Assembly (NCBI RefSeq): GCF_003325355.1
Contig: NZ_CP030850.1
Location: 3,286,001-3,350,000, forward strand
Length of the DNA stretch: 64,000 nt
Direction of reading: 5' to 3'
Source of the DNA: Runella rosea
Lineage (GTDB): Bacteria > Bacteroidota > Bacteroidia > Cytophagales > Spirosomataceae
In this document: in pieces, positions 33,075-36,265 of the stretch
How positions within the stretch are numbered: position 1 is the stretch's first letter
How the letters are laid out: each line of letters starts with the position of its first letter
Notes under the pieces: model-generated
Told to the model about the DNA's origin: nothing
Databases searched by the model: none
What the model saw: only the letters and a program-made list of their open reading frames with translations
Made by a program: the position numbers and the translations under genes

Positions 33075-34121
33075 TCAGGGAATAATTCGCTCTACAATTT
33101 TCTCGGCAGTGGCTCGGATAGCAGGCACCGCTACCGAATTTCCAAATTGCTTATAGGCCGAGGCGTCTGCCACTACAATCTTAAATTCATCGGGAAAGCC
33201 TTGCAGGCGGGCCCATTCGCGAGGGGTCATTTTTCGGATGCCTTCGCGATTCACCTCACCTTTGATTTTGGTCATGGGTGTATAATCCGTAATTCTAAAG
33301 TCGTACACCAGATTTCGTTCACGGCCCATTCCGCCCACCACAATGGCATTGGCAATGGCATCGTCGGCGATAATTTCATAGCCAAAACCATTGCCTTTAT
33401 TGGCATGGCGTTGTTTATGGTTAATCAACGTCTGTAAATACTGGGTAGATAAGTAATATTTAGCCGACACGGGCAACGTCTCTTTCACGTCTTCAAACGC
33501 CACTGGAATGCCCAACGGCTTGGGGTATTCAAAATCATTAATGTATAAATCCTCCCTAAAACCCACTATAAAGATGCGCTCCCGATTCTGCGGCACCCCA
33601 AAGTCTTTGGCATTCATCACTTTGGGTTCGGGCACATAATATCCCAAATCTTCGCGCAAGGTGGCTAAGATTGTTTTGAGGGTTTGGCCTTTGTCGTGAT
33701 TGATGAGTCCTTTGACGTTTTCCAGAAAAATGGCTTTGGGTTTTTTACGGCGGATAATATCGGCCACGTCGAAAAACAGCGTTCCACGCGTGTCCTCAAA
33801 CCCGCCGCGCCGCCCCGCAATGGAAAAGGCTTGACAGGGAAAGCCTCCACACAAAATATCGAACCCATCCGGAATTTGACTTTTGGTTTCTTCTTTGGTA
33901 ATGTCGCCAAAGGGTACTTCACCAAAATTAGCTGCGTAGGTCTTCTGCGCCTGTGGGTCCCATTCGCTGCTGAACACACACTGACCACCGAGGGATTGCA
34001 GAGCCATTCTGAACCCGCCGATACCAGCGAATAAATCTATAAAGGTAAAAACGGGTTGGGGTACGGAAGGGAAAGGAATATTTTCAGCCTCGTTTAGACT
34101 GATTTTTTCGGTTACTGTCAT
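33075..34121 (-). CDS. DNA (cytosine-5-)-methyltransferase
   Basis: A 348-residue C5-methyltransferase. Motif I FIDLFAGIGGFRMAL (27-41), the Asp/Glu of EWD (53-55), the catalytic Cys in GGFPCQAFS (92-100), ENVKGL (134-139), QNRERIFIVGF and the C-terminal FGNSVAVP are all present and uninterrupted. A variable target-recognition region lies about residues 215-310. The recognition site cannot be read from the sequence. xisI and the broken xisH are 110 bp upstream on the same strand, which may make it part of a restriction-like cluster (inference); no clear restriction endonuclease is present. Confidence 0.93.
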   Translation of the reverse strand: MTVTEKISLNEAENIPFPSVPQPVFTFIDLFAGIGGFRMALQSLGGQCVFSSEWDPQAQKTYAANFGEVPFGDITKEETKSQIPDGFDILCGGFPCQAFSIAGRRGGFEDTRGTLFFDVADIIRRKKPKAIFLENVKGLINHDKGQTLKTILATLREDLGYYVPEPKVMNAKDFGVPQNRERIFIVGFREDLYINDFEYPKPLGIPVAFEDVKETLPVSAKYYLSTQYLQTLINHKQRHANKGNGFGYEIIADDAIANAIVVGGMGRERNLVYDFRITDYTPMTKIKGEVNREGIRKMTPREWARLQGFPDEFKIVVADASAYKQFGNSVAVPAIRATAEKIVERIIP

Positions 34122-34230
34122 CGATTACTGCTTTTCGTCTTTGACTGCAAATAGCTAAACTTTGTCACGGATTGCAACAAAATTATGAAAGGGTGAGCTA
34201 ATTTGCCTTTGTAAAGACGGCCTAATAAGT

Positions 34231-34581
34231 TTATGCCACCGCATACCCTTCAAGATAAGGGCGAACCGCAGGGGCTTGGAAACCAATCACAATATCGCTT
34301 TTCGGAATTCCGTATTTTTGTAGTTTTTCAGCGATACGAAGATCGGTGCCATCATGTTGAAGCCATACTTTACCATCCGGCTTAACATCAATATGAATGA
34401 AAGAAGCATACGTCCATCCACTGTTTATTTTAGTCCAACCTACCCCAAAGTACAAATAATGCCCGTGTTCGTCGTCTGTAATTAATTGATTTTCTACTCC
34501 ATTTTCAATCATAGGCGACAATCCAGCCACTTCTTCAACGATTTTAGGGGCTATCTGTTTGTATTCTGTTAACTTATCCAT
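34231..34581 (-). CDS. xisI: XisI family protein
   Basis: A 116-residue protein matching the XisI family, first known as a partner of XisH in excision of the fdxN element in cyanobacteria, later seen widely in XisH-XisI gene pairs. Conserved features: DEHGHYLYFGVGW, IHIDVKPDGKVWLQHDGTD and IVIGFQAPAVRPY near the C-terminus. It starts 13 bp inside the end of xisH, the usual pair overlap. Reading frame is intact although its partner is interrupted. What the pair does in non-cyanobacteria is not established; toxin-antitoxin or nuclease roles are inferred. Confidence 0.88.
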   Translation of the reverse strand: MDKLTEYKQIAPKIVEEVAGLSPMIENGVENQLITDDEHGHYLYFGVGWTKINSGWTYASFIHIDVKPDGKVWLQHDGTDLRIAEKLQKYGIPKSDIVIGFQAPAVRPYLEGYAVA

Positions 34582-34988
34582 TGTTTAATTTCAGGTTCTA
34601 TTTCATCGAAAATAAGCATCTTAACATCAAAAGACCGAGCAACATCCATAAAGAATGCATCATCGAAAAATCGCTCATAAAAACCAACAGGAACGGCAAG
34701 ATATAACACCCGTTCAGGATCATTTATTTTTAATGCTTTCCAATAAAGCAAAAACTGCCCAAGTGCATCTTCAAAGTTATCCAGATCAGAATTTCCGACA
34801 AAACTTTTAATTTCAATGGCAATTTTTTGATTTGCTTTTTCCGCCGCTATGATTTCACGCTCCGCTCCCAAGTCGATGTAACCACGCCGCCGCCCCATTA
34901 TAATTTTATAGGGATCATGCGTAATTTGCTAGTTTTCATTTATCAAAGCTAGCTTAACCAACTCATGAAAAATATCTTTGGCGGCCAT
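34569..34988 (-). pseudogene. xisH: XisH family nuclease-like gene with an in-frame stop
   Basis: Reading from ATG 34988, codons 1-19 (MAAKDIFHELVKLALINEN) match the XisH N-terminus. Codon 20 is TAG at 34931-34929, exactly where the family has a conserved Trp (TGG) before ITHDP; a single A at 34930 instead of G explains it. After it the frame continues QITHDPYKI, GYIDLGAE and AIEIKSFVGNS to a normal end, overlapping xisI by 13 bp. The PD-(D/E)xK-like residues (Asp in IDLGAE, Glu and Lys in EIKSF) remain. An ATG at 34898 could give a 109-residue N-truncated protein. A true nonsense mutation is more likely than a sequencing error, but I cannot tell. Confidence 0.85.
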
Positions 34989-35101
34989 ACCATCTCTTTT
35001 GTTGTTTTACCAAATTTACACTCAAATCCTGCATAAAAAAATCCCCTTTGATTTCGTTTTAACTGAAATTCAAAAATGAATGCATTTTTATAAAAACAAA
35101 T

Positions 35102-36265
35102 TTATTTTTCTACCAACACTTCCATTGCCGCCTGCAAATACATTTCCGAATCCTGCTTAAAGTAGGGGCCTACCTTTTGCGGGGCTTCTTTGTGGCCTAG
35201 CCGCACTACCACCGCATTTTTGGCGGGAATCGCCCAGATGAGTTGTCCCAACAAACCGCGCATACTGACCGTTTGAAGGTCTTTGTAAGGTTGCATCCAA
35301 AACTGATACCCGTAGACTTCAATGGGCTTACCAGTTTTAGGGTCAATGACTCCTTTAGCGGGGCTTAGGGCTTCGGTCATGTATTTTTCGGAAGCAATTT
35401 GGCGGCCTTTCCAATTCCCTTTCCAGAGCATCAGGTGCCCGAATCGGGCATAATCGCGCGCGGTGGGGGCAAAACAACAAAAGGCTTTTTCGCGGCCTTT
35501 GGGTTTGTCGAGCATCCAGTAGGCATCTGTTTCGCTACCGATACGCTGAAATATTTTTTCGGAAGCTAGGTCGGCTATTTTTTTGTTGTACACTTTTTCC
35601 AATACTAAGCCCAGAATTTGGGTGTCGCCACTGCGGTATTCAAATTCTTTACCAGCAGGTTTTTCTACGTTCAGGCCGTCGATGACATCGGCCATGTCTT
35701 CGCCGTAGTAGCCGTAGGCATTGTTGCTAAACACCCCACGGTCTTTTTCGTGCCAATCCAGTCCACTACTCATGGTCAGGCAGTGACGCAGCGTAATTTT
35801 CGCCTTTTCTCCTTCGCGAAACGAGTCGATGTAATTAGAAATCGGCTCGTCCAACCCTCTGAGTTTATTTTCGTACAACGCCACTCCCACCAGCATCGAA
35901 ATAATACTTTTGGCGGCCGAAAAAGATTGACTCAGGGTTTTAGCGTCAAAATCTTCCCAGTATTTTTCATAAACCAATTTACCATCTTGAAACACCAAAA
36001 AAGCCGTTGTCTGGTATTTTTCTAGCGTATCCATGAGGTTTTTGGAAATTACCGCTTTGTTAAAATTAGAGTCCAGCGGCCAAGGTTCAGGAAGAGTGGA
36101 AGCCAATACCTGACGTTTAGGGTGGTGCTTATAATCCAAAATATCCACTTCTCCGCGCTGCACATAATTACGAATATGAACAAACGGCGGCGTGTAGGTC
36201 AGGCCCGCGCCCAAAAGCAATAAGCCGCCCAAACCAAAAAGTAAATTACGAAATAGCCTTTTCAT
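35102..36265 (-). CDS. Serine hydrolase (class C beta-lactamase-like)
   Basis: A 387-residue membrane-anchored enzyme: hydrophobic N-terminal segment 6-22, then a beta-lactamase/PBP fold with SxxK at S116-A-A-K119 (in SFSAAKSI). A Tyr-containing loop FEYRSGDTQI takes the YxN position. The C-terminus (GQLIWAIPAKNAVVVRLGH) is typical of the family, although the usual KTG is replaced by IPAKNA. Such proteins act as esterases or peptidases on cell-wall or small ester substrates rather than on antibiotics. No linked genes help. Confidence 0.85.
   Translation of the reverse strand: MKRLFRNLLFGLGGLLLLGAGLTYTPPFVHIRNYVQRGEVDILDYKHHPKRQVLASTLPEPWPLDSNFNKAVISKNLMDTLEKYQTTAFLVFQDGKLVYEKYWEDFDAKTLSQSFSAAKSIISMLVGVALYENKLRGLDEPISNYIDSFREGEKAKITLRHCLTMSSGLDWHEKDRGVFSNNAYGYYGEDMADVIDGLNVEKPAGKEFEYRSGDTQILGLVLEKVYNKKIADLASEKIFQRIGSETDAYWMLDKPKGREKAFCCFAPTARDYARFGHLMLWKGNWKGRQIASEKYMTEALSPAKGVIDPKTGKPIEVYGYQFWMQPYKDLQTVSMRGLLGQLIWAIPAKNAVVVRLGHKEAPQKVGPYFKQDSEMYLQAAMEVLVEK

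What the first reader, a model, noticed from the sequence alone, without database searches (positions are those of the whole stretch)
34569..34988. xisH is broken by a single nonsense codon at the conserved Trp
From ATG 34988 the minus strand reads the full XisH N-terminus, a TAG at codon 20 (34931-34929), then the rest of XisH in the same frame with no frameshift. Homologues have Trp before ITHDP, so TGG to TAG explains it. Everything else (the PD-(D/E)xK-like Asp, Glu and Lys, and the overlap with xisI) is intact, which points to recent loss, or to a shorter product from ATG 34898.
Basis: partly seen in the sequence, partly recalled or inferred. Interest (0 to 1): 0.7.

Follow-up and report, generated by a model that had tools for sequence, protein, structure and literature searches.

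The report
Broken nuclease gene, intact partner kept
A small two-gene cassette recently acquired by this bacterium has lost its probable DNA-cutting gene to one stop codon while its partner stays intact, and the same one-sided loss recurs in relatives and in cyanobacteria, as expected of a toxin and its antidote.

Summary
Confirmed: xisH (34569-34988, minus strand) is open except for a TAG at codon 20, a column that is Trp in 57 of 57 intact relatives; xisI downstream is intact. An active shorter product from ATG 34898 is unlikely: it would lack four invariant residues, the first helix and the first two strands.

The larger result is a directional pattern. In 222 genomes of the family, 17 loci have broken XisH beside intact XisI, 11 have intact XisI without XisH, and one has intact XisH beside broken XisI. 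In 24 cyanobacterial genomes the counts are 22, 32 and 0. Pooled 39:1, p about 1e-9. On a XisI tree the XisH-lost state needs 21 changes and does not cluster.

The window's cassette is a recent arrival: in its nearest relatives the slot holds the relic of another two-gene module.

Best reading: XisH is a harmful PD-(D/E)XK-type nuclease and XisI its antidote, so XisH dies first. This is inferred: toxicity was not tested and no control gene pair was run.

The parts
34569..34988 (-). xisH, broken: XisH frame (PF08814) with one in-frame stop
34929..34931 (-). TAG at codon 20; the column is Trp in 57 of 57 intact XisH
34896..34898 (-). internal ATG (Met31) proposed as a start; not conserved in relatives
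34231..34581 (-). xisI, intact, 116 aa (PF08869); overlaps the xisH end by 13 nt (34569-34581)
34185..35112 (.). segment with no match in the slot of G002, G011 and G012 (flanks 90-93% identical DNA); G+C 0.37-0.40 over most of it against 0.45-0.50 in the adjoining 1.2 kb and 0.6 kb; no flanking duplication found
33075..34121 (-). C5 cytosine methyltransferase (PF00145); conserved flank, present in relatives without xisHI
35102..36265 (-). beta-lactamase-family hydrolase (PF00144); conserved flank

Best explanation
xisH-xisI is a small mobile cassette that works like a toxin-antidote pair. XisH is a PD-(D/E)XK-type nuclease that is costly or dangerous to the host. XisI, translated from an overlapping frame, restrains it or makes it safe. 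The cassette spreads horizontally. Once resident it decays mainly in one order, XisH first and XisI afterwards, because the reverse order would leave a free nuclease. In this genome the cassette arrived on the terminal branch and XisH has already been killed by one nonsense codon, leaving an orphan XisI. Shown: the lesion, the recent arrival, the one-sided and repeated loss. Inferred: that XisH is harmful alone and that XisI neutralises it.
For: One-sided loss in two phyla: family, 222 genomes, 17 broken XisH with intact XisI against 1 the other way, plus 11 intact XisI without XisH and no intact XisH without XisI; cyanobacterial order, 24 genomes, 22 against 0, plus 32 XisI-only; pooled 39:1, p about 1e-9, and intact partner missing for 80 of 215 XisI but 1 of 136 XisH. 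By my reading 8 of the 17 and at least 13 of the 22 are large deletions, truncations or a 16-nt insertion. Losses recur: the label needs 21 changes on a 77-row XisI tree, at least 11 by starred branches. Sister species G009 and G010 carry the same xisHI locus with different lesions. Catalytic Asp, Glu and Lys invariant in 57 of 57; the model of an intact relative (pLDDT 93.9) matches XisH structures 2INB and 2OKF (E about 1e-15) and, weakly (E 0.001 to 0.2), several nucleases: nickase N.BspD6I, Bax1, Cas4, BamHI, McrBC, Avs3. Cassette behaviour: recent arrival in a slot where relatives hold a DUF6932 module or its relic; 38 plasmid records with XisH, 13 on plasmids predicted conjugative. A published genome has four xisH and seven xisI (PMC4853749, passage read).
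Against: No toxicity or neutralisation data. G225 has intact XisH beside XisI with an in-frame stop. XisI whose XisH is gone has longer end branches (median 0.322 against 0.147, p = 0.015), which fits slow decay but could mean a new role. No control gene pair was run, so I cannot say how unusual such asymmetry is for overlapping pairs. 7 of the 17 family lesions are single-base by my reading and may include sequencing errors. Loci count genes, not events, and the tree has few columns. The weaker fold matches also include non-nucleases (Rab5, MamM). In Nostoc PCC 7120 xisH and xisI are required for fdxN-element excision (PMC4874684, passage read), which a plain toxin model does not explain.
Confidence: 0.55

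Rival explanations
1. XisI has a function of its own, such as a recombination directionality or regulatory factor, and XisH is a dispensable accessory, so XisH decays while XisI is kept.
For: XisI-only loci are common (11 in the family, 32 in the cyanobacterial order). Between XisI copies with broken or absent XisH, dN/dS is 0.05-0.24 in the 25 of 40 listed pairs that could be computed (dS mostly above 1). PMC4853749 calls XisH a likely endonuclease and XisI a recombination directionality factor (passage read).
Against: XisH-lost copies do not form lasting clades: 21 changes against a shuffled mean of 22.4. XisI evolves faster once XisH is gone. No recombinase is among the 25 commonest Pfam families of 102 flanking proteins. 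It does not explain why intact XisH is almost never found without XisI (1 of 136).
Confidence: 0.25
2. The lesion in the window is not a real loss: an assembly error, TAG readthrough, or a working N-truncated XisH.
For: It is a single-base lesion with all else intact, and no reads were available.
Against: The genome is of high quality. The two other copies of this XisH type in the genus are broken in other ways, one by a large deletion. The truncated form lacks four invariant residues and the first helix and strands. TAG also ends 6 of 39 open frames of 250 codons or more in the window (mechanical list).
Confidence: 0.12
3. xisH with the neighbouring C5 methyltransferase was a restriction-modification pair that lost its nuclease.
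For: The methyltransferase is the next gene on the same strand.
Against: The methyltransferase sits beside the same hydrolase in G002, G011 and G012 without xisHI; the related xisHI of G009 and G010 lie elsewhere.
Confidence: 0.03

Closest known systems
XisH/XisI of the Nostoc PCC 7120 fdxN element (PF08814/PF08869; relatives of known structure 2INB, 2OKF, 2NLV, 3D7Q)
   Same: Same two families; the XisH profile matches 2INB and 2OKF at E about 1e-52 over full length, the XisH model at E about 1e-15; XisI matches 2NLV and others.
   Different: The immediate neighbours here are a hydrolase and a methyltransferase, not a recombinase or nif gene; XisH is broken.
Type II toxin-antitoxin modules
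   Same: Two small overlapping genes, one nuclease-like, patchy, mobile, on plasmids, toxin-like gene lost first.
   Different: No toxicity or neutralisation shown. No PADLOC hit for either protein at E 1. The putative toxin gene comes first.
Restriction endonuclease with an orphaned methyltransferase
   Same: PD-(D/E)XK-type motif beside a cytosine methyltransferase.
   Different: The methyltransferase is independent of xisHI in relatives.

Membership tests
XisH (PF08814) | Profile match above the curated cut-off | tested here: met
   108.2 bits against 25 for the part after the stop; 151.3 bits over the whole frame with one stop
XisH (PF08814) | Intact open reading frame | tested here: not met
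   TAG at codon 20
XisH (PF08814) | Invariant Asp and Glu-x-Lys | tested here: met
   Asp39, Glu59 and Lys61, 57 of 57 in relatives
XisI (PF08869) | Profile match above the curated cut-off, intact frame | tested here: met
   111.1 bits against 25, 116 aa
fdxN-type excision system | Recombinase and excisable element alongside | tested here: inconclusive
   Immediate neighbours are a hydrolase and a methyltransferase. Among 102 of 109 flanking proteins of 57 other loci no recombinase is in the 25 commonest families (210 families, 25 shown). XisF was not searched.
Type II toxin-antitoxin | Toxin-like gene not found without its partner | tested here: met
   1 of 136 intact XisH lacks intact XisI; 80 of 215 intact XisI lack intact XisH
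Type II toxin-antitoxin | Toxin harmful alone, neutralised by partner binding | not testable with these tools
   Needs expression and binding assays
Type II toxin-antitoxin | Horizontal, patchy, plasmid-borne distribution | tested here: met
   47 of 222 family genomes have a XisH match (46 over the cut-off); 38 plasmid records; replaced slot
Restriction-modification pair with the adjacent methyltransferase | Nuclease and methyltransferase inherited together | tested here: not met
   Methyltransferase without xisHI in the same slot in G002, G011 and G012

The most novel reading that the evidence does not exclude
XisH-XisI, annotated as fdxN-element excision factors, is in the main a widespread toxin-antidote (nuclease-inhibitor) module of cyanobacteria and Bacteroidota, spreading by horizontal transfer and decaying XisH-first. 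The fdxN role would then be a domestication of a selfish or defence pair.
Probability: 0.5. Interest if true: 0.75.

Novelty: new variant of a known kind. Interest (0 to 1): 0.55.

Why it matters
What xisHI does in genomes without an fdxN element is open: a 2009 paper says the function in nonheterocystous strains is still to be disclosed (PMC2674450, passages read), and a 2016 paper that the roles are unclear (PMC4874684, passage read). A strict order of gene loss gives a cheap test of a toxin-antidote role and predicts what a bench assay should show. I found no toxin-antidote reading of XisHI in the held library (searches; open-licence papers only, seen as listings and some passages).

Tried and rejected
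Rejected: working N-truncated XisH; restriction-modification with the neighbouring methyltransferase; transposon insertion (no flanking duplication or terminal repeats seen); the sigma-70 and terminator scan found nothing above shuffles (Bacteroidota promoters are not covered). One apparent exception, G103:C382 XisI, was re-read as a natural C-terminus like that of L023 and moved to the intact class; without that change the pooled count is 39:2. Two cyanobacterial XisI-only loci at contig ends (G246:C134, G248:C91) were left out of the 121. Set aside because neither gene is intact: family 9, 7 and 1 loci; cyanobacteria 19, 6 and 2. G245:C161 XisH is cut only near its C-terminus and may work; without it the pooled count is 38:1. 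G101:C167 starts at a contig edge but also carries internal stops. The first XisI tree (78 rows, 22 changes, 14 forced) and branch test (p = 0.005) included one truncated XisI, L135; the report uses the repeat without it (77 rows, 21 changes, 11 forced, p = 0.015). dS between G000, G009 and G010 is mostly saturated, so timing rests on the slot tree, not on dN/dS.

PHROGs, NCBIfam and PADLOC gave nothing informative for XisH or XisI. Phage records: no match; viral contigs: 2. The script stopped with an error after making its sets; one search finished it.

Full report
Observation. The minus-strand frame 34988-34569 reads as XisH with one internal TAG at codon 20 and no frameshift. The part after the stop scores 108 bits against Pfam XisH and the following gene, which overlaps it by 13 nt, 111 bits against XisI. 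No other copies were found in this genome. The stop lies in a column that is Trp in 57 of 57 intact XisH proteins from the loci then fetched; the other columns invariant in all 57, including Asp39, Glu59 and Lys61, are intact.

Is a shorter product likely? A start at ATG 34898 (Met31) would lose Asp5, His8, Trp20 and Asp25, each invariant in 57 of 57, and Met31 itself is Leu, Ile, Val or Ala in 48 of 57. In the AlphaFold2 model of an intact relative (L022, mean pLDDT 93.9) the first helix (residues 2-16) and first two strands (20-23 and 26-30) lie in the lost part. I judge an active truncated protein unlikely. A relative of another genus, G174, has TAG at the same Trp; Trp codons are prone to nonsense mutation (established knowledge), so I read this as parallel.

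Where did the cassette come from? The genes on both sides, a beta-lactamase-family hydrolase and a C5 cytosine methyltransferase, lie next to each other in G002, G011 and G012 without xisHI; in G003 the slot holds a DUF6932 gene (PF22014) and a small ORF, relics of which remain in G002, G011 and G012. A tree of the two flanking genes is (G003,((window,G002),(G011,G012))) with all five inner branches starred. So the window's segment 34185-35112 replaced the relic after the split from G002. It has no match in those slots. Its G+C is 0.37-0.40 over most of its length against 0.45-0.50 in the adjoining methyltransferase gene and the near end of the hydrolase gene, though the far end of the latter falls to 0.41. 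The loss of XisH is younger still. Related copies in G009 and G010 of the same genus sit elsewhere, downstream of a shared 417-aa gene (proA by recall), and are also broken: G010 by a stop at another codon, G009 by a large internal deletion. So the 3 copies of this XisH type that I found in the genus are all broken, each differently.

Is that general? I paired XisH and XisI matches in 222 genomes of the family (47 with XisH, 46 with XisI). At first count: both intact 65; XisH broken, XisI intact 17; XisH absent, XisI intact 11; XisH intact, XisI broken 2; XisH intact, XisI absent 0; neither intact 17. One of the two exceptions is a natural C-terminus, leaving one, G225. As a replicate I took 24 genomes of a cyanobacterial order (20 with XisH, 22 with XisI): 69, 22, 32, 0, 0 and 27. 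Fetching the DNA of the 22 showed XisH remnants in each, away from contig ends. In the family, several XisI-only loci keep XisH pieces beyond the gene overlap (G003, G004, G010, G005:C158, G104:C111). By my reading 8 of the 17 and at least 13 of the 22 lesions are large deletions, truncations or a 16-nt insertion, which a sequencing slip is unlikely to make; 7 of the 17 are single-base and 2 carry more than one small lesion. Against an expectation by gene length, 39:1 has p about 1.3e-9; intact XisI lacks intact XisH in 80 of 215 cases and intact XisH lacks intact XisI in 1 of 136. These count loci, not events; on a XisI tree of 77 rows the lost label needs 21 changes (11 forced by starred branches; few columns, many forks open) and is as scattered as shuffled labels (mean 22.4).

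What does it mean? One-sided loss follows if XisH without XisI is harmful, or if XisI is useful alone. The scatter at the tips and the longer end branches of XisI once XisH is gone (median 0.322 against 0.147, p = 0.015; broken class no different from intact, p = 0.62) favour the first: orphan XisI is a passing state. Constraint between XisI copies with broken or absent XisH (dN/dS 0.05-0.24 in 25 of 40 listed pairs, the rest saturated) could predate the losses. XisH has the conserved Asp and Glu-x-Lys expected of PD-(D/E)XK nucleases (PMC4853749 places xisH among them, passage read). Its model matches the XisH structures 2INB and 2OKF and then, weakly (E 0.001 to 0.2), AF2093, the nickase N.BspD6I, Bax1, Cas4, BamHI, Avs3 and McrBC, mixed with unrelated GTPases and MamM. 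XisI gives a confident single-domain model (pLDDT 94.3) that could not be searched. In the 102 of 109 flanking proteins scanned from 57 loci no Pfam family occurs in more than 4, most of the commonest are housekeeping, and 3 are Uma2. 38 plasmid records carry XisH and 43 XisI. This is toxin-antitoxin behaviour. It remains an inference: nothing here shows that XisH is toxic or that XisI binds it.

Against known work. Passages read: XisH and XisI are required for fdxN-element excision and their roles are unclear (PMC4874684); XisH a likely endonuclease and XisI a recombination directionality factor, with four xisH and seven xisI in Thiomargarita Bud S10 (PMC4853749); cotranscription with hoxW in Lyngbya and unknown function in nonheterocystous strains (PMC2674450). 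The structural paper behind the second statement (PMC5094899) is not held. The only held paper with both XisI and antitoxin names antitoxin in an unrelated reference.

Verdict. The lesion is real in the assembly and the loss recent; as a single pseudogene it is ordinary. The repeated, ordered loss in two phyla is the result of interest and makes a toxin-antidote role for XisHI directly testable.

Noticed in passing
L124:1199-1214 (G206) and L127:1716-1731 (G222): Two divergent broken XisH genes carry the same 16-nt G+C-rich insertion at the same codon, inside the catalytic Glu-x-Lys motif. The pattern CCGGGNCGCCGGNGCG is a dispersed repeat: 16 of 18 genomes searched, 1 to 51 copies each, reversed control 1 in all, none in the window's genome; some copies lie in close inverted pairs.
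   Followed up: partly
L237:2638-3359: In G003 the slot between the hydrolase and the methyltransferase holds a DUF6932 gene (GS..DxD, nucleotidyltransferase-like by recall) plus an 86-aa ORF without a Pfam match; relics of the ORF in G002, G011 and G012. The slot looks like a turnover site for small two-gene modules.
   Followed up: partly
L121:1350-1352 (G174:C241): A second XisH in another genus has TAG at the same invariant Trp codon as the window.
   Followed up: partly
L114, L126, L129: Three XisH frameshifts fall just before the catalytic motif, in or near short homopolymer runs; slippage or sequencing error, not resolved.
   Followed up: no
A3 (102 flanking proteins): Three of 102 genes next to xisHI are Uma2-family putative restriction endonucleases, another PD-(D/E)XK-like family (by recall).
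   Followed up: no
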